A stretch of DNA of 64,000 bases, taken from contig NZ_CP130821.1 of NCBI RefSeq assembly GCF_004151275.2, positions 1-64,000 of the forward strand, written 5' to 3'. The position numbers were made by a program, and so were the translations under genes. Below, one piece after another: positions 16,133-23,061 of the stretch. The stretch's first letter is position 1. Each line of letters opens with the position of its first letter. The notes under the pieces are model-generated. The model searched no databases. It saw nothing but the letters and a program-made list of their open reading frames with translations, and had not been told where the DNA came from. Source of the DNA: Flavobacterium dauae. Its GTDB lineage: Bacteria > Bacteroidota > Bacteroidia > Flavobacteriales > Flavobacteriaceae.

Positions 16133-16393
16133 ATGGAAGCTTTAAAGAAAGAATTAAAAGAACGCATTATCGATGTATTGAATTTAGAAGATATTTCAAT
16201 TGAAGATATTCAGGATAACGATCCGCTTTTTGGCGACGGTTTAGGATTAGATTCTATTGATGCTTTAGAATTAATCGTATTGTTAGATAAAGAATACGGC
16301 ATTAAATTAGCTGATCCAAAACAAGGAAAAGAGATTTTTAAGTCTATTGAAACAATGGCACAATACATCGCACAAAACAGAACAAAAATATAA
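16133..16393 (+). CDS. Acyl carrier protein 2 of the pigment locus
   Basis: An 86-residue acidic helical protein with the phosphopantetheine serine at Ser41 in GLGLDSIDALE. It is distinct from the carrier protein at 6402 and may serve the dialkylresorcinol branch or the second ketosynthase set. Its last base overlaps the start of the ketosynthase downstream. Confidence 0.9.
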   Translation: MEALKKELKERIIDVLNLEDISIEDIQDNDPLFGDGLGLDSIDALELIVLLDKEYGIKLADPKQGKEIFKSIETMAQYIAQNRTKI

Positions 16394-17583
16394 TGCAAAA
16401 AAAAGTTGCAATTACAGGAATGGGCATTATTTCATCGATTGGTTTAACGGTCGATGAAAATTTTCAATCGTTAATTTCCAAGAAAAGCGGTATTTCAGAT
16501 TTGGAGAATTTCCAAACCCGTCATGCTTCAGAAATTAAAGTCGGCGAAATTAAAATTACTAACCAGCAATTGCAACAACTGTTGAATTTACCCAAAGAAA
16601 ATACCTTTACACGTACTAGTTTGCTTGGTGCTTATGCAGCCAAAAAAGCGGTTGAAAGTGCTGGTATTACTGATATAAACGAGGTTCGTGCCGGATTGAT
16701 TTCTTCGACCAGTGTTGCCGGAATGGATTTTACCGAAAAACATTACAAAAAGTACCAGGAGCATCCGGAATATCAAAAGTATATTCAAAGTCACGATGCC
16801 GGTGATTCATCAAATAAAATTGCCAATTATTTAGGGTTGAAAGGATTTGTAACCACCATTTCAACCGCATGTTCATCGGCTGCAAATGCCATTATGTTGG
16901 GTGCAAGCATGATTGAAAACGGCTATTTAGATCGAGTAATTGTTGGTGGAACCGATGCGTTGAGCAAGTTTACCATTAATGGTTTTAAAACCTTGATGAT
17001 TTTGTCTGATACTTATAACACCCCTTTTGACAATGACCGTAAAGGTTTGAATTTGGGCGAAGCCGCAGCTTATTTGGTGTTGGAATCTGATGAGATTATC
17101 AAGAAAAACAACAAAAAGGTTTTGGCTTACGTTGCAGGTTACGGCAATGCAAATGACGCATTCCATCAAACAGCATCGTCAGAAAACGGTGAAGGAGCGT
17201 ATTTGGCAATGAAACAAGCTTTTGAAAAGGCTTCTATCCTACCCAATCAAATTGATTACATCAACGTTCACGGAACGGCAACACCAAACAACGATTTATC
17301 TGAAGGTAGAGCGATGAGCAGAATCTTTAACAACGTACCAAAATTTAGTTCAACAAAAGCATTTACAGGTCACACATTGGCGGCTGCGGCTGCAATTGAA
17401 GCGGTTTACAGCGTGTTGGCATTGCAAAACAACATAGTCTTCCCTAACCTGAATTTTAAAACGCCTATGGAAGAATTGAATATTGTTCCTGAAACCGAAG
17501 TTGTTCAAACCGAAATAAATTATGTACTTTCAAATTCTTTTGGGTTTGGCGGAAATTGTTCCACTTTAATCTTTTCGAAATAG
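16393..17583 (+). CDS. Beta-ketoacyl-ACP synthase 3
   Basis: A 396-residue ketosynthase with complete catalytic residues: Cys160 in STACSSAAN, His293 in NVHGTATP and His327 in AFTGHTLAA. With the 5095 and 14416 genes it makes three active condensing enzymes, plus two without a catalytic Cys. It is the last pigment gene before the defence-like insertion; its expected downstream partner, the Cys-less ketosynthase, resumes at 22012. Confidence 0.87.
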   Translation: MQKKVAITGMGIISSIGLTVDENFQSLISKKSGISDLENFQTRHASEIKVGEIKITNQQLQQLLNLPKENTFTRTSLLGAYAAKKAVESAGITDINEVRAGLISSTSVAGMDFTEKHYKKYQEHPEYQKYIQSHDAGDSSNKIANYLGLKGFVTTISTACSSAANAIMLGASMIENGYLDRVIVGGTDALSKFTINGFKTLMILSDTYNTPFDNDRKGLNLGEAAAYLVLESDEIIKKNNKKVLAYVAGYGNANDAFHQTASSENGEGAYLAMKQAFEKASILPNQIDYINVHGTATPNNDLSEGRAMSRIFNNVPKFSSTKAFTGHTLAAAAAIEAVYSVLALQNNIVFPNLNFKTPMEELNIVPETEVVQTEINYVLSNSFGFGGNCSTLIFSK

Positions 17584-17622
17584 AATTTTTAAAAATTTAT
17601 ACTACTTTCAATAAATAAAAAA

Positions 17623-17649
17623 AACCTGAAGCGTAAAAACGTTCAGGTT
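17623..17649 (-). terminator. Terminator downstream of the Abi_2 gene
   Basis: AACCTGAA (17623-17630) and TTCAGGTT (17642-17649) form an 8-bp stem that continues inward as CGT/ACG with one bulge. Read on the minus strand it is followed by a run of eight T, so it should stop transcription from the Abi_2 gene; on the plus strand the downstream T-run is weak. Confidence 0.65.
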
Positions 17650-17733
17650 ATTATATCCTTGTTTTAAAGTGCTGCTTTATAGCAGTAATGTATAAAGGGG
17701 CACTATATATAATGCAAATGTACAACAAAGTAA

Positions 17734-18603
17734 TCATATATCAAAACCTATTTTGGTTTCAATAATATTATTTAACACATTATTTGCTTTGGACTTATTT
17801 ATAACATCTTTAATTTTCGTTTCTAATTCATCAGCTCGGTTTTGAGAAACTTTGCTTAAAATGTATAAAATTAAACGTATTGAGGCATTTAGGTTTGCTT
17901 GATTTCTGTTTTTAAATCTGTACTTTTTATTTGGGATTCTCTTAATACCAACAGGTTGATTATAATCAAACAGAATACCACTATGTGAACAAATATTACG
18001 AATATTCACAATAGATTTAAGGTAATTCTCTAATAAACTAAAATCTCGGAGTCCGTATATATTTGCGATCTCATTTTTTAGATTTTTATCTTGAATACTT
18101 TGATAGAATTTAAAAACTTGTCCAAAGGTTAGGAATTCAAAAGTTTTCCAAGCAGGCGCAAATTTATCATTAATATATTTATTGTGATGGTTGAGAATGG
18201 TTTTGTTTTTTTGCTTTAAGGTGTCATAGATTGGCTTAAATGCTGAAATAGTATTTTCTTTTATGATTTTTTTGTCTATAAACCAAGTAGGGGAATCTTT
18301 GTACCTGTTTGAAACATAATAAACTACTTGTGTTCTAAAATGAACTTCTATTCGATACAGGTATTTTGATAGTATATTTTTTAAGTCAATATCTAAATAA
18401 TACAGTTTTATTATGTCTTCAATATCAATGTTTTGGTTAAAATTATGGTCTTGAGAATTTTGAAAATAAAACCAATAAAAGCCCAACCTGTAATATCCAA
18501 TATCCAAAAGATATTCTTTTGCTTTGTCATCATCTTTAACAGACAGCCCTCTGTTCTTTAATAAATCTATTTGTTCATCAATAGTAGTAGCTTTAAGTCC
18601 CAT
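17734..18603 (-). CDS. Abi_2 family (AbiD/AbiF-type) abortive-infection protein
   Basis: A 289-residue protein of the Abi_2 family. N-terminal LKNRGL and YYRLGFYWF are family wording, and RNICSH at 202-207 is an RNxxxxH-type HEPN ribonuclease motif followed by SGILFDYN. Such proteins act as phage-triggered growth inhibitors, presumably by RNA cleavage; AbiF relatives are reported next to a structured RNA. It is transcribed away from the methyltransferase operon, visibly A+T richer than the pigment genes, and has its own downstream terminator. It is part of the insertion in the pigment locus. Confidence 0.82.
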   Translation of the reverse strand: MGLKATTIDEQIDLLKNRGLSVKDDDKAKEYLLDIGYYRLGFYWFYFQNSQDHNFNQNIDIEDIIKLYYLDIDLKNILSKYLYRIEVHFRTQVVYYVSNRYKDSPTWFIDKKIIKENTISAFKPIYDTLKQKNKTILNHHNKYINDKFAPAWKTFEFLTFGQVFKFYQSIQDKNLKNEIANIYGLRDFSLLENYLKSIVNIRNICSHSGILFDYNQPVGIKRIPNKKYRFKNRNQANLNASIRLILYILSKVSQNRADELETKIKDVINKSKANNVLNNIIETKIGFDI

Positions 18604-18683
18604 AAATAATTAGAGTAATAAATTTACAGACAAGATACCTAATAAAAAGTAAATTTGAAAATGGATTTACTATGAAATATTTT

Positions 18684-18710
18684 AGCACTCTAAAAAAGTG
18701 CTTACATTTG
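18684..18710 (+). promoter_or_regulatory. Promoter with embedded inverted repeat for the cassette
   Basis: TACATTTG at 18703-18710 matches the TAnnTTTG core. Immediately upstream, AGCACT (18684-18689) and AGTGCT (18697-18702) form a 6-bp inverted repeat within the promoter spacer, a position typical of a repressor operator. Transcripts would run through the hairpin element into the methyltransferase operon. Confidence 0.5.
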
Positions 18711-18788
18711 TAATAATTCAATTCAACACAAAAATATAGACATAGAAAAATAACATATTAAAATATAATTGAGCTTTTAGCTCTTATT

Positions 18789-18922
18789 CTCTAAATCAGA
18801 AACGTAGGAAATTTCTAAATCACACGAGAATAAGGCTGCGAAAGTTCACGCTCACTGGGCGTGAACTGTTTTCGTTTGCACTTATTTGTGTGATGGGTCT
18901 TCCTACGTACCTTGATTTTGAG
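18789..18922 (+). ncRNA. Candidate structured RNA (near-continuous 130-nt hairpin)
   Basis: Five nested pairings lie in order: CTC-AAATCA (18789-18798) with TGATTT-GAG (18913-18922); ACGTAGGAA (18802-18810) with TTCCTACGT (18900-18908); ATCACAC (18819-18825) with GTGTGAT (18888-18894); AATAA (18829-18833) with TTATT (18882-18886); and the terminal GTTCACGC (18844-18851) with GCGTGAAC (18859-18866), 7-base loop TCACTGG. Small asymmetric bulges separate them, as in a functional RNA rather than a transposon end. It sits between the Abi_2 gene and the methyltransferase. An abiF-associated RNA is the best guess; a long 5' leader of the operon is the alternative. Strand is uncertain. Confidence 0.6.
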
Positions 18923-18970
18923 TAAGTAAAAAACGTGCAGTTCATTGCCCTTTTTTATTTGCTTATTGGT

Positions 18971-18997
18971 TTAAGAGTTTTAAGCATAAACTCTTAA
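18971..18997 (+). promoter_or_regulatory. Inverted repeat at the methyltransferase start
   Basis: Perfect 10-bp arms TTAAGAGTTT (18971-18980) and AAACTCTTAA (18988-18997) with a 7-base loop end 3 bases before the ATG at 19001. As DNA it could be an operator; as RNA it would bury the ribosome-binding region and limit methyltransferase translation. Confidence 0.65.
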
Positions 18998-19000
18998 AGT

Positions 19001-19963
19001 ATGGCAAAAAAGTCTGCAAATTCAAATCTTCACAAAGCAAAAACCAATAAAAAAGACGAGTTTTATACCCAACTTTCGGATATTGAAAGAGAATTGAGGC
19101 ATTACAAAGACCATTTTAAAAACAAAGTGGTTTTGTGTAATTGCGATGACCCTCGTATAAGTAATTTCTTTCATTACTTTTCTTATAATTTTGAAAAATT
19201 AGGGCTTACAAAACTGATAACCACTTGCTACAAAAGTCAAAACCTTGAGTTATTTAGTGATAACAATTCCGAGCAGGCAGTTTACTTGGAATATACAGGA
19301 GATAAAAACGGAAATAATGTGCCTGATGTAGAAGAAATTGGGATAAAACCATTACAAGGCGATGGGGATTTTCGCAGTCAAGAAAGCATTGAATTACTAA
19401 AACAAGCTGACATTGTAGTTACCAATCCACCTTTTTCTTTGTTTCGGGAATATGTCGCTCAACTGATTGAATACGATAAAAAGTTTGTAATTGTTGGACA
19501 TCAAAATGCTATAACCTATAAAGAAATTTTTAAACTGATTAAAGAAAATAAAATTTGGTTAGGCTATGGTTTTACAGGAGGTGCAGGGCATTTTATTAAC
19601 AAACACTATGAAGATTATGCAACAGCAACCGACCATAAAGAAGGAATGATTAGAGTTTCGGGAGTAGTATGGTTTACTAATCTTGATATTTCAAAACGGC
19701 ACGAAGACTTAATTCTTTACAAAAACTACACACCCGAAGAATATCCAACTTACGATAATTACAACGCTATAAACGTAGATAAGACAAAAGATGTTCCACA
19801 AGATTATTCGGGTTTTATGGGTGTTCCAATTACTTTTTTGGATAAATTTAATCCTGAACAGTTTGAGATTATAAAATTCCGTAAAGGTGATGATGATAAA
19901 GATTTGAGCATAAACGGAAAGTGCCCCTATTTTAGAATGATTATCAAAAACAAAAAATTATGA
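19001..19963 (+). CDS. EcoRI-type adenine-specific DNA methyltransferase
   Basis: A 320-residue protein of the M.EcoRI family. It begins NLHKAKTNKKDEFYTQLSDIE, has the SAM/target motif NPPF at 142-145 (in VVTNPPFSLF), and ends with a segment typical of the family. It should methylate adenine N6 in a specific DNA site, protecting the host. It is the first gene of a three-gene operon and overlaps the next gene by 4 bases. Although the family is named after M.EcoRI, I cannot deduce the recognition site; no EcoRI-like nuclease is adjacent. Confidence 0.85.
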   Translation: MAKKSANSNLHKAKTNKKDEFYTQLSDIERELRHYKDHFKNKVVLCNCDDPRISNFFHYFSYNFEKLGLTKLITTCYKSQNLELFSDNNSEQAVYLEYTGDKNGNNVPDVEEIGIKPLQGDGDFRSQESIELLKQADIVVTNPPFSLFREYVAQLIEYDKKFVIVGHQNAITYKEIFKLIKENKIWLGYGFTGGAGHFINKHYEDYATATDHKEGMIRVSGVVWFTNLDISKRHEDLILYKNYTPEEYPTYDNYNAINVDKTKDVPQDYSGFMGVPITFLDKFNPEQFEIIKFRKGDDDKDLSINGKCPYFRMIIKNKKL

Positions 19964-20802
19964 TACCAAAAGAAATACAAGCATTATTTAAGTTCATTGA
20001 TTATTTGGACGAAAACAAAAGAGAATATATTGAGAAATATATACCTCTTTATAATGAGTTGAAAGAACTTAATAAACAAAGAAGCGAATTAAATCCTAAA
20101 AGAACTTACAAGGGCAAACAACAATATGACATTGTTCAAAAGCAAATAGAAGAAAAATTCAAACCTATATTAGAAAACATATATAACCCTGTAACGAGTA
20201 AGTTACGAGAGTTAGGAATATGGTCGGGAGATGACACTTATGCAAGTATTCACAACAATAATATTTCTACAATATGTGATTTTCAAAGAAATTTTATAGA
20301 AAACGATGTTGAACAAGTAATAAAGTATAAACAAAAATATTTGAGTTTTAGAAATAAAACTAATAGCGATTTTTTTTGTTTAACATTTGTTTTTCACGGA
20401 TTGGACGAAATCTTAAAAGAACTTTTTGATTTTTTCAAAGACACAAATGAAAATGAATTTGACAGTTTTGAAGCAAAAACAATCAAAGTTAAAAATATTG
20501 AAGAACTCACAAAAATAATATCAGAAGGAAGAGAAAAAAACTTGAAATTTTATTTCCCTATGGAAGTTTTCTCTAATACAAAGAATGAAAAACAAACAAT
20601 GGCTATTCCTACAAATATAAATACCGAAGTAATTATGGGAGATAAATTTAATGTTGATAATATTTCAAACAATAAAGGACAAATTTCTATTGGAAAAGAA
20701 ATTAAAACAATAGTAAATGAGAAAGATAAAATTGCAAAAAAGTCTTTCTTTTGGCAGAAATGGGGAACAATAACAGGATTTTTTATTTCAATCTTTAAAT
20801 AA
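19960..20802 (+). CDS. Unrecognised cassette protein with C-terminal hydrophobic anchor
   Basis: A 280-residue protein I cannot assign. Residues 1-70 are charged and helical, perhaps coiled coil (LYNELKELNKQRSELN). The middle is unremarkable. Near residue 225 the IMGDKFNVDNISNNKGQ stretch recalls a linker found in bacterial conflict proteins, and the C-terminus ends WQKWGTITGFFISIFK, a short hydrophobic segment that could insert in membrane. It lies between methyltransferase and nuclease with 4-base overlap and 4-base gap, so it is almost certainly a functional component of the same system. Confidence 0.6.
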   Translation: MIPKEIQALFKFIDYLDENKREYIEKYIPLYNELKELNKQRSELNPKRTYKGKQQYDIVQKQIEEKFKPILENIYNPVTSKLRELGIWSGDDTYASIHNNNISTICDFQRNFIENDVEQVIKYKQKYLSFRNKTNSDFFCLTFVFHGLDEILKELFDFFKDTNENEFDSFEAKTIKVKNIEELTKIISEGREKNLKFYFPMEVFSNTKNEKQTMAIPTNINTEVIMGDKFNVDNISNNKGQISIGKEIKTIVNEKDKIAKKSFFWQKWGTITGFFISIFK

Positions 20803-20806
20803 AATT

Positions 20807-21889
20807 ATGAAAATCGAATTAAAAGAAATAACCGTCCGAGAATTGGCAGAAGGTTTTAAAGACAATGCAGAAAACGGAGTGATTGGTTTTGGAGGAGAAT
20901 TGGATATTCGCCCACCTTATCAACGTGAATTTATTTACAAAGACAAGCAGCGTGATGCTGTAATTGATACGGTTACAAAAGATTATCCGTTAAATGTGAT
21001 GTATTGGGCTGTTCGAGATGGCGGAGGTTTTGAAGTCATTGACGGACAGCAACGTACGATTTCGATTTGTCAGTACGTAAACGGAGATTTTGCACATAAT
21101 TTTATGTATTTCCACAATTTGCAAAACGATCAAAAAGAGCAGATACTGAACTATAAGCTAATGGTTTATGTTTGTAGCGGAACAGATAGCGAAAAGCTAG
21201 AATGGTTCAAAACCATTAATATAGCAGGAGAAAAGCTGACCGAACAGGAATTGCGAAATGCGGTTTATTCGGGTTCGTGGGTTTCCGATGCGAAACGCTA
21301 TTTCAGCAAAAATGCTTGTCCTGCCTATCAGATTGGAAGTGATTATCTTACAGGCTCGCCTATCCGACAGGAATATTTTGAAACAGCTATTGATTGGATT
21401 TCCAAAGAGAACATTGAAGTTTATATGTCCAATCACCAACACGACCCAAATGCAAGTGCTTTGTGGAGGTATTTTCAGGACGTTATTTCCTGGATAAAAT
21501 CGAATTTTACTACCTATCGTAGAGAAATGAAAGGTGTGGAATGGGGCTTTTTATATAACGATTTTAAAGATGAGGTTTACGATACAAAACAACTTGAAAC
21601 CGAAATTGCAGAGTTAATGCAAGACGAAGATGTTAGCCGAAAACAAGGGATTTACTCTTATGTTTTAACACGAAAAGAACGTTTTTTGAGTATTCGCTCT
21701 TTTACCGACAAGCAAAAACGTGAGGCTTACGAAAGACAACAAGGAATCTGCCCGAAATGCGACAATCATTTTCAGTTCAACGAAATGGAAGCAGACCACA
21801 TTACACCTTGGCATGAGGGAGGAAAAACCGTTGCAGATAATTGTCAAATGTTATGTAAACACGATAACCGAATAAAGTCTGGAAAATAG
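20807..21889 (+). CDS. DUF262 domain protein with C-terminal HNH nuclease
   Basis: A 360-residue two-domain protein. The DUF262 domain (about 1-250) shows PPYQRE (36-41) and the DGQQR nucleotide-hydrolysis motif at 79-83. The C-terminal HNH domain (about 315-360) has CPKC, then ADHITPWHEGG and NCQMLCKHDN. DUF262-nuclease proteins act as modification-sensitive or nucleotide-gated restriction enzymes (GmrSD, SspE relatives). Next to an adenine methyltransferase it is most simply the restriction subunit, sparing methylated host DNA. Confidence 0.85.
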   Translation: MKIELKEITVRELAEGFKDNAENGVIGFGGELDIRPPYQREFIYKDKQRDAVIDTVTKDYPLNVMYWAVRDGGGFEVIDGQQRTISICQYVNGDFAHNFMYFHNLQNDQKEQILNYKLMVYVCSGTDSEKLEWFKTINIAGEKLTEQELRNAVYSGSWVSDAKRYFSKNACPAYQIGSDYLTGSPIRQEYFETAIDWISKENIEVYMSNHQHDPNASALWRYFQDVISWIKSNFTTYRREMKGVEWGFLYNDFKDEVYDTKQLETEIAELMQDEDVSRKQGIYSYVLTRKERFLSIRSFTDKQKREAYERQQGICPKCDNHFQFNEMEADHITPWHEGGKTVADNCQMLCKHDNRIKSGK

Positions 21890-21896
21890 ATTAAAA

Positions 21897-21969
21897 ATTC
21901 TGGTTGTATTTATTCAATTTTATTTTTTAAAAATAATATATAAGCAATTATTAAAATTGTTGCCAGAAT
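21897..21969. repeat. Nested inverted repeats at the right edge of the cassette
   Basis: ATTCTGG (21897-21903) pairs with CCAGAAT (21963-21969), and inside it CAATTTTA (21915-21922) pairs with TAAAATTG (21952-21959). This fills the gap between the nuclease stop and the resumed pigment operon; it may be a terminator or the scar of the insertion. Confidence 0.55.
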
Positions 21970-21986
21970 TTCATTTAAAAAAAATG

Positions 21987-21994
21987 TAAATTTG
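21987..21994 (+). promoter_or_regulatory. Promoter core restarting the pigment operon
   Basis: TAAATTTG fits TAnnTTTG, 18 bases before the ATG at 22012. It could replace the upstream operon promoter now separated by the insertion. Confidence 0.45.
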
Positions 21995-22011
21995 TATTTA
22001 AGCTAAACTAA

Positions 22012-23061
22012 ATGAAAAACTGTTACATAAACGGTATTGGCAACGTAAGTATTCAATCGGTTGATTTTGATTTGTTTGAATCGGAAATTATAGAAATACA
22101 ACGATTAAACACTGCCCAACAACCATCGTACAAAGAGTTGATTGCTCCGGCTATGAGTCGCCGTATGGCAAAAGGTGTAAAAATGGGTATTTATGCTGCC
22201 AATAAAGCATTGTTCAATGCCAAAATGGTCGATCCGCAAGCTGTTATTGTGGGTACAGGATTAGGTTGTATTGAAGATTCTGAAAAATTTTTGGATGCCA
22301 TCATAGAAAACGATGAACAGTTTTTAACTCCCACAGCTTTTATACAGTCAACCCATAACACGGTTGCAGCACAAATAGCCTTGCATTTGCAGTGTAAAGC
22401 GTACAATTTTACCTACGTTAACGGAGCAAATTCGTTTGAAAGTTCTTTGTTTGATGCTTTTATGCAGTTGAAACATTTTAACAAGGAAAATATACTGATT
22501 GGCGGAGTTGATGAAATTGCACCGTACACGTTTTCAATGTACGAAATGATTGGAAAAGTAAAGCAGAGTGGGGAAGAGGTGAATTTTAAAAATCCACAAA
22601 CAAAGGGAATTGCGTTAGGTGAAGGAGCTACTTTTTTTAGTTTATCAAACCACAAAACCAATAAAAGCTATGCAGAGGTTTTAGATGTGATACTTTTTAA
22701 CGCATTTAAAGACGATGAAGCTACAGAAATAACTACTTTTTTGAGTAAGAACAATCTTTCTATTGTTGATTTGGATGTAGTTTTTTTTGGAGTGAATGCC
22801 GATGCACTTCAACAGGAATTTTACAATAGAATGAATACTGTTTTTAACAAGATTCCGCAGGCTTATTACCAGCATATTTCAGGAAGTTATGATACGGCAT
22901 CTGCATTTGGATTAAAAGTTGCAGCAGAAATCATTCAAAAACAAAAGCTTCCAAATGCTATTCAGTACAACGAAATCAAACCAACTAAAATTGAAAAAGT
23001 ACTGATGATCAATCAGTTTAACAATACCGATTTTAGTTTTGTTTTACTATCAAAATGTTAA
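22012..23061 (+). CDS. Ketosynthase-like protein lacking the catalytic cysteine
   Basis: A 349-residue thiolase-fold protein of the ketoacyl-synthase / chain-length-factor type. It keeps the core layout (VGTGLGCIEDS, QSTHNTVAAQIALHL) but the nucleophile position reads VNGANSFES instead of the ACxSGS pattern, and the His motifs are absent. It probably partners an active ketosynthase, as chain-length factors do. It overlaps the deacetylase gene by 7 bases. It would normally follow the 16393 ketosynthase, from which the defence cassette now separates it. Confidence 0.78.
   Translation: MKNCYINGIGNVSIQSVDFDLFESEIIEIQRLNTAQQPSYKELIAPAMSRRMAKGVKMGIYAANKALFNAKMVDPQAVIVGTGLGCIEDSEKFLDAIIENDEQFLTPTAFIQSTHNTVAAQIALHLQCKAYNFTYVNGANSFESSLFDAFMQLKHFNKENILIGGVDEIAPYTFSMYEMIGKVKQSGEEVNFKNPQTKGIALGEGATFFSLSNHKTNKSYAEVLDVILFNAFKDDEATEITTFLSKNNLSIVDLDVVFFGVNADALQQEFYNRMNTVFNKIPQAYYQHISGSYDTASAFGLKVAAEIIQKQKLPNAIQYNEIKPTKIEKVLMINQFNNTDFSFVLLSKC

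What the first reader, a model, noticed from the sequence alone, without database searches (positions are those of the whole stretch)
17623..21969. Defence-like cassette inserted in the middle of the flexirubin operon
Two pigment ketosynthase genes that would normally be contiguous (16393-17583 and 22012-23061) are separated by about 4.4 kb holding an Abi_2 HEPN protein, a large hairpin element, an EcoRI-type adenine methyltransferase, an anchored unknown protein and a DUF262-HNH nuclease. The methyltransferase, unknown and nuclease genes are packed with a 4-base overlap and a 4-base gap. The set looks like a composite of restriction-modification and abortive infection around a possible RNA. 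I do not know of this exact combination being described.
Basis: partly seen in the sequence, partly recalled or inferred. Interest (0 to 1): 0.8.

Follow-up and report, generated by a model that had tools for sequence, protein, structure and literature searches.

The report
Unlisted structured RNA before restriction genes
An ordinary DNA-cutting defence gene set that has inserted into a pigment operon starts with a folded RNA that is common in Bacteroidota, absent from the RNA family library searched, and probably acts as a switch for the genes behind it.

Summary
In detail: about 4.4 kb separates two ketosynthase genes that are contiguous in 29 of 29 relatives examined. The one-system reading does not. 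Of 80 loci with a related nuclease, 77 hold an M.EcoRI-type methyltransferase (an ordinary type II R-M pair), 1 holds the unknown gene and 0 Abi_2.

The hairpin is the discovery: a ~200-nt RNA (window 18767-18970) with five covarying helices, a covarying pseudoknot, and a 3' arm that can pair with helix P6 and is followed by a T-run in 68 of 79 copies, like an attenuator. Rfam 15 searches found no match. It occurs in 28 of 395 Bacteroidota genomes and 109 of 199 of the genus, with five copies in this genome. The next gene runs the same way in 31 of 31 phylum-wide loci; 0 of 49 intervals hold the promoter box. It precedes SusC-like, exported-protein and, at five loci, R-M genes.

Best reading: a cis-acting transcription attenuator gating the R-M operon. 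The signal is unknown; termination and expression are untested.

The parts
18767..18970 (+). Conserved structured RNA (match of covariance models R1 and R2), probable leader of the R-M operon
   Evidence: 104 bits, E 1e-16 with a model trained without the window; 129.7 bits with R2, which was trained with it
18703..18710 (+). TAnnTTTG promoter-like box 64 nt before the RNA
   Evidence: Pattern; in 56 of 79 copies such a box lies 23-31 nt before the RNA, here it is further off
18771..18783 (+). RNA helix P1 (18771-18774 with 18780-18783)
   Evidence: Covarying in 37 sequences, helix 1
18784..18833 (+). Pseudoknot helix P2 (18784-18791 with 18826-18833)
   Evidence: Arm-swap test on 36 sequences, 0 of 2000 permutations reach the observed total
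18795..18916 (+). Helices P3 (18795-18799 with 18911-18916, one bulge), P4 (18803-18810 with 18900-18907) and P5 (18819-18825 with 18888-18894)
   Evidence: Covarying helices 2-4; placement in the window read from the sequence
18844..18866 (+). Helix P6 (18844-18851 with 18859-18866)
   Evidence: Helix 5
18937..18956 (+). 3' arm (about 18937-18950) that can pair with the 3' strand of P6, and T-run 18951-18956: terminator-like
   Evidence: Arm-swap test on 35 sequences, 0 of 2000; T-run in 68 of 79 copies
19001..19963 (+). EcoRI-family adenine methyltransferase
   Evidence: PF13651 E 1.1e-137, PADLOC MTase_II
19960..20802 (+). Unknown helical protein, C-terminal hydrophobic helix cut short; accessory gene between methyltransferase and nuclease
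   Evidence: 314 relatives, alignment of 58, model
20807..21889 (+). DUF262 (GmrSD_N) plus HNH restriction nuclease
17734..18603 (-). Abi_2/AbiD protein, divergent neighbour, judged separate
21987..21994 (+). TAnnTTTG promoter-like box pointing into the second ketosynthase gene
   Evidence: Pattern; function inferred

Best explanation
The cassette is a horizontally acquired type II R-M operon whose first ~200 transcribed bases are a conserved pseudoknotted leader RNA. In one fold helix P6 and the helices around it form. In the other a 3' arm displaces one strand of P6, pairs with the other, and with the following U-run terminates transcription. Read-through gives one mRNA for methyltransferase, accessory protein and nuclease. 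An unknown signal that favours the first fold would turn the operon on. Shown by sequence: structure, competing helix, T-run, upstream promoter box in most copies, co-directional next gene, no promoter box between. Inferred: that termination and switching happen, and that a signal exists. Abi_2 is a separate divergent neighbour.
For: Covariation: 94.6% of cells paired, 32 of 33 pairs with changes on both sides, slid controls 31-43% (that alignment was fitted to the structure). Pseudoknot and competing 3' helix, neither in the model: 0 of 2000 arm permutations reach the observed totals, in 36 and 35 of 37 sequences. T-run after the 3' arm in 68 of 79 copies, background 15%. Promoter box 23-31 nt upstream in 56 of 79. 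Next gene co-directional in 31 of 31 phylum-wide, 39 of 42 chosen genus loci, 6 of 6 others. No TAnnTTTG in 49 of 49 RNA-to-gene intervals of 60-450 nt, 6.8 expected. At five R-M loci the match ends 30-46 nt before the methyltransferase frame.
Against: The two folds were compared only in a nested energy model: median difference 2.5 kcal/mol, terminator fold lower in 25 of 79, and in the window the P6 fold is favoured by 10.2. The terminator helix would close a long loop of some 70 nt. Two prophage-like contigs have the RNA converging on an XRE gene and 3 of 42 genus loci are not co-directional. Downstream genes are too varied for one metabolic signal. Only 5 of 81 R-M loci carry the RNA, and 1 of 25 in a second set. 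The suspected helix P7 failed its test. No expression data.
Confidence: 0.55

Rival explanations
1. The RNA is a self-contained trans-acting small RNA with its own promoter and terminator. Its place before the methyltransferase reflects read-through or shared mobility, not cis control.
For: Own promoter box and terminator-like end. Two prophage-like contigs in which it converges on an XRE gene, one with two copies in tandem. Several copies per genome: five in the window's genome. Conserved small RNAs that act on SusC mRNAs or proteases are known in Bacteroidota (passages).
Against: Co-directional next gene in 31 of 31 phylum-wide loci and no promoter box in 49 of 49 intervals.
Confidence: 0.25
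2. The conserved unit matters as DNA: a foldable recombination or insertion site, like an attC site, at the edge of mobile gene cassettes.
For: Different surroundings at each R-M locus; attC-like hairpins upstream of the same R-M in L023, L027 and L028 (by eye); neighbours rich in mobile and conflict genes.
Against: A promoter box at fixed distance, a terminator-like end and compensatory G-U pairs point to RNA; fixed orientation to the next gene.
Confidence: 0.1
3. The RNA is an antitoxin or regulator of the neighbouring Abi_2 protein, like RCd22 of AbiF in C. difficile.
For: Abi_2 starts 164 nt from the RNA. RCd22 is a terminated RNA co-transcribed by read-through with an Abi_2-family gene and neutralises the protein (PMC12373285, abstract and section 7).
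Against: Here RNA and Abi_2 are divergent. No abiF RNA family match: whole window at gathering and two stretches at E up to 10 and 5. None of 30 scanned upstream neighbours of other copies is Abi_2.
Confidence: 0.05

Closest known systems
Type II R-M pair of an M.EcoRI-family methyltransferase and a DUF262-HNH nuclease (PADLOC PDLC03297 and PDLC03418)
   Same: Both proteins, gene order and packing; 77 of 80 nuclease loci hold the methyltransferase
   Different: Extra gene between the two (1 of 80 loci has the same) and a structured RNA in front (5 of 81)
Riboswitches and attenuator leaders with an intrinsic terminator
   Same: Structured 5' domain with a pseudoknot, alternative helix before a T-run, co-directional next gene
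   Different: No known ligand or protein; very varied downstream genes; no Rfam 15 match found
abiF RNA / RCd22 with AbiF (RF03085; PMC12373285, abstract and section 7)
   Same: A terminated RNA near an Abi_2-family gene
   Different: abiF motif not found; divergent here; about 200 nt against about 100-130 nt; other copies scanned lie next to no Abi_2
FopS small RNAs of Bacteroides (PMC11697453, passages)
   Same: Multicopy RNAs in Bacteroidota linked to SusC genes
   Different: FopS are about 65-70 nt and act in trans by base pairing; no sequence comparison was made
Rfp18 of Flavobacterium psychrophilum (PMC9723704, passages)
   Same: Structured small RNA conserved in the genus
   Different: Sequence not available here, so identity is neither shown nor excluded
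GmrSD type IV restriction (PMC4619093, passages)
   Same: DUF262 domain with DGQQR
   Different: HNH PF01844 in place of DUF1524; paired with a methyltransferase

Membership tests
Type II restriction-modification system | DNA methyltransferase with a cognate nuclease in one operon | tested here: met
   Families and gene order; 77 of 80 related loci hold both
Type II restriction-modification system | Site-specific methylation and restriction | not testable with these tools
   Needs a methylome and plating tests
AbiF / Abi_2 RNA-neutralised system | Abi_2 protein | tested here: met
   PF07751 E 1.3e-41
AbiF / Abi_2 RNA-neutralised system | abiF RNA motif RF03085 next to the gene | tested here: not met
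Riboswitch-like transcription attenuator | Conserved structure supported by covariation | tested here: met
Riboswitch-like transcription attenuator | Mutually exclusive terminator helix followed by a U-run | tested here: met
   At sequence level only; energies comparable, window biased to one fold
Riboswitch-like transcription attenuator | Next gene co-directional and without its own promoter | tested here: met
   31 of 31; 0 of 49 intervals with the box
Riboswitch-like transcription attenuator | Binds a ligand or factor that changes termination | not testable with these tools
   No biochemical data
Metabolite riboswitch | Downstream genes share one pathway | tested here: not met
   SusC-like, exported proteins, sigma factor, R-M
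Any Rfam 15 family | Match at the curated score | tested here: not met
   Window, 5 and 10 further loci: no match at the RNA
FopS small RNA family | About 65-70 nt | tested here: not met
   Model match about 170-210 nt
GmrSD type IV restriction | GmrD (DUF1524) domain | tested here: not met
   Pfam gives HNH PF01844, no DUF1524
Integron attC site | attC core sequences and integrase | not tested
   Only looked at by eye

The most novel reading that the evidence does not exclude
A new class of switching leader RNA, spread across Bacteroidota and onto plasmids, prophage-like contigs and one contig binned as Planctomycetota, senses a general cell or invasion signal and has been recruited repeatedly to gate horizontally moving genes: restriction systems, SusC-like uptake loci with private XRE regulators, and exported proteins. 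To my knowledge (recall, not searched exhaustively) it would be the first RNA attenuator controlling a restriction-modification operon.
Probability: 0.3. Interest if true: 0.88.

Novelty: new variant of a known kind. Interest (0 to 1): 0.7.

Why it matters
A structured RNA this large, this strongly covarying and this common (109 of 199 genomes of one genus) that Rfam 15 does not match is a clear target. Its competing terminator-like helix makes termination and signal directly testable. If it gates R-M expression, it suggests how such a system could be established in a new host without a controller protein. If it gates SusC loci, it bears on nutrient choice in Bacteroidota.

Tried and rejected
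One five-part system: rejected on co-occurrence. Known Rfam RNA: no match at the RNA; weak chance-like hits. Integron attC site for the window element: attC-like hairpins seen by eye at other loci of this R-M, not here; not formally tested. Retron RNA: considered because of the long hairpin; no reverse transcriptase noticed among neighbours read by eye or scanned, no dedicated search run. Fold of the unknown protein: helical, no PDB match at E <= 0.001; no relative in plasmid or phage records; in 296 phylum genomes only the own copy plus two weak fragments in much longer frames. Helix P7 around the 3' arm: failed a permutation test, 236 of 2000. First hand alignments of the RNA were misaligned in the 3' half and were replaced. 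Phage records: only short chance-like matches to the RNA or none. One spaced pattern in viral contigs: nothing. Paper searches listed no paper that I recognised as describing this RNA; the library is open-access only and I read listings, abstracts and passages, plus one section of PMC12373285.
Full report
What is there. The stretch 17584-22011 interrupts a ketosynthase gene pair. In 29 of 29 relatives whose loci were fetched (30 loci were returned, one the window's own) the pair is contiguous, with gaps up to about 90 nt. In the closest relative, 95% and 91% identical, one gene runs into the next. The insert holds Abi_2 on the minus strand and, on the plus strand, a hairpin region, an EcoRI-family methyltransferase, an unknown gene and a DUF262-HNH nuclease. 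The 4-base overlap and 4-base gap are real. G+C falls to 0.23-0.29 around Abi_2 and the unknown gene. A promoter-like TAAATTTG at 21987 points into the second ketosynthase gene and may keep it expressed (inference).

The proteins are ordinary. The nuclease has relatives (67-77% identical) in 80 fetched loci, the best of 579 confirmed candidates on a capped list, from many phyla (named). A methyltransferase match is in 77 of the 80; in L066 it lies about 5 kb away, in L026 it is broken, in L070 it lies on the other side, and two of the three misses start within 240 nt of a contig end. The unknown gene lies between the pair in one of the 80 (L028); Abi_2 is near none (tblastn, E 1e-4). Other genes sit in that slot in L053 and L066. 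In 25 loci from a phylum-wide methyltransferase search (25 of the 30 fetched; five weak or partial ones were left out) only the window carries the RNA. The unknown protein has 314 relatives; most of those aligned end in a hydrophobic helix that the window protein has largely lost. Its model is a confident helical N-terminal part with a disordered tail, mean pLDDT 68, without a PDB match at E <= 0.001.

The hairpin is a conserved RNA. By eye, four of the 80 loci carry the same architecture directly upstream of the methyltransferase: L015, L021, L049, L075. A Phocaeicola plasmid carries it before a small open frame that looks like an XRE regulator. A covariance model from L115, L021 and L075 alone found the window element at 104 bits, E 1e-16, L049 at 8e-8 and L015 at 8e-5; reverse-strand matches at E 0.02 and 0.3 show the noise level. 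It hit 28 of 395 Bacteroidota genomes, own included, with 32 places, 31 outside the window's genome. A second model from 37 sequences, window included, hit 109 of 199 genomes of the genus and five places in the window's own genome. Both large searches used stricter filters. With it, 5 of 81 R-M sources (80 loci and the window) carry the RNA. Of 19 viral-contig stretches holding one conserved 16-mer, four gave matches (five in all, E <= 0.0011), one with two in tandem. A Chitinophagaceae plasmid has a blastn match, 82% over 70% of the query.

Structure. Helices P1, P3, P4, P5 and P6 on 37 sequences: 94.6% of cells pair, 32 of 33 pairs have changes on both sides, slid controls fall to 31-43%. 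That alignment was fitted to the structure and leans towards it. Two interactions outside the model were tested by swapping arms between sequences. Pseudoknot P2 (36 of 37 sequences usable): total 566 against 448, sd 16. Competing helix between the 3' strand of P6 and a 3' arm (35 usable): 1200 against 775, sd 35. In both, 0 of 2000 permutations reach the observed value. These tests do not correct for relatedness. The 3' arm is followed by at least five T in eight bases in 68 of 79 copies, background 15%. A suspected hairpin P7 failed: 236 of 2000. In a nested energy model the two folds differ by a median of 2.5 kcal/mol; the terminator fold is lower in 25 of 79; in the window the P6 fold is favoured by 10.2.

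Leader or free RNA. The next gene downstream is co-directional in 31 of 31 phylum-wide loci, 39 of 42 loci that I chose from the genus search and the own genome, and 6 of 6 others; the upstream neighbour is divergent in 21 of 31. A TAnnTTTG box lies within 80 nt upstream in 63 of 79 copies, at 23-31 nt in 56, against 4.8% of background 80-nt stretches; in the window it is 64 nt away. None of 49 RNA-to-gene intervals of 60-450 nt (of 73 loci) holds the box; 6.8 expected. So most copies look like transcribed leaders. Exceptions: two prophage-like contigs where the RNA converges on an XRE-like gene, and 3 of 42 genus loci, one of them through a spurious small frame.

What it leads. Ten of the 31 phylum-wide loci lead SusC-sized genes followed by a SusD-like gene (named by eye). 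Pfam finds a Cro/C1-type or related HTH in 13 of 30 scanned upstream neighbours (one of 31 left out). Others include ParE (2), a weak PemK match below its cut-off, Mrr with STAND, a type I R-like protein, an AAA ATPase and an IS1595 transposase. Of 19 further downstream proteins scanned (of 21), 13 have no Pfam match and six have: a beta-propeller with secretion tail, DUF5683 (below cut-off), an NlpB-type lipoprotein, MORN repeats, Fib_succ_major and an ECF sigma factor. At the five R-M loci the model match ends 30-46 nt before the methyltransferase frame. On a tree of 80 nuclease sequences (79 loci and the window) the RNA label needs five changes, as many as shuffled labels (mean 4.9); starred branches force two; the bootstrap had not settled. 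So the RNA joined this R-M type more than once, or was lost repeatedly. At roughly one copy per 50 Mb in the phylum sample (my estimate), five such placements are hard to get by chance.

Known or not. Rfam 15 has no match at the RNA in the window, five further loci or ten more. abiF RNA, known next to Abi_2-family genes (PMC12373285, abstract and section 7), was not found. FopS (PMC11697453, passages) is much shorter. Rfp18 of F. psychrophilum (PMC9723704, passages) is a conserved structured small RNA whose sequence I could not see. Paper searches listed nothing else that I recognised; they cover open-access papers only.

Verdict. Best reading: a riboswitch-like attenuator leader in front of an ordinary, mobile type II R-M operon beside an unrelated Abi_2 gene. 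The sequence evidence for a structured RNA with a competing terminator-like helix is strong; its function is untested.

Noticed in passing
L023, L027, L028, upstream of the methyltransferase: Long hairpins that look like integron attC sites in front of the same R-M type; nuclease sequences of L023, L027, L028 and L033 are nearly identical although the hosts differ, so this R-M may travel as an integron cassette.
   Followed up: partly
L152, L155, L163, L212, L216, L220, L221, L224, L237, just before the SusC-like start codon: A second conserved hairpin lies between the RNA and the SusC-like gene (sequences printed).
   Followed up: no
L294:4439-4905: Two copies of the RNA in tandem on a prophage-like IMG/VR contig between an integrase-like gene and a convergent XRE-like gene.
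   Followed up: partly
L053:7134-7997 and L066:2866-8004: Other genes (looking like BRO/KilA-N proteins, and in L066 an OLD-like ATPase; labels by eye) sit between methyltransferase and nuclease: the slot takes different accessory genes.
   Followed up: partly
L026:738-4795: The methyltransferase gene is interrupted by two genes that look like an IS21 pair (by eye).
   Followed up: no
L250, L246, L247: In the window's genome and in its close relative, copies of the RNA precede a small gene that looks like a response-regulator receiver (by eye).
   Followed up: no
L161, L164, L170: Three copies in one genome (G095) each precede related genes of a family without a Pfam match in the two scanned.
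   Followed up: no
window 20760-20802: The unknown protein ends about 10-15 residues early, inside the hydrophobic C-terminal helix of its relatives.
   Followed up: partly
window 18684-18702: An inverted repeat AGCACT/AGTGCT lies just before the promoter-like box of the RNA and between it and Abi_2; possible operator (read).
   Followed up: no
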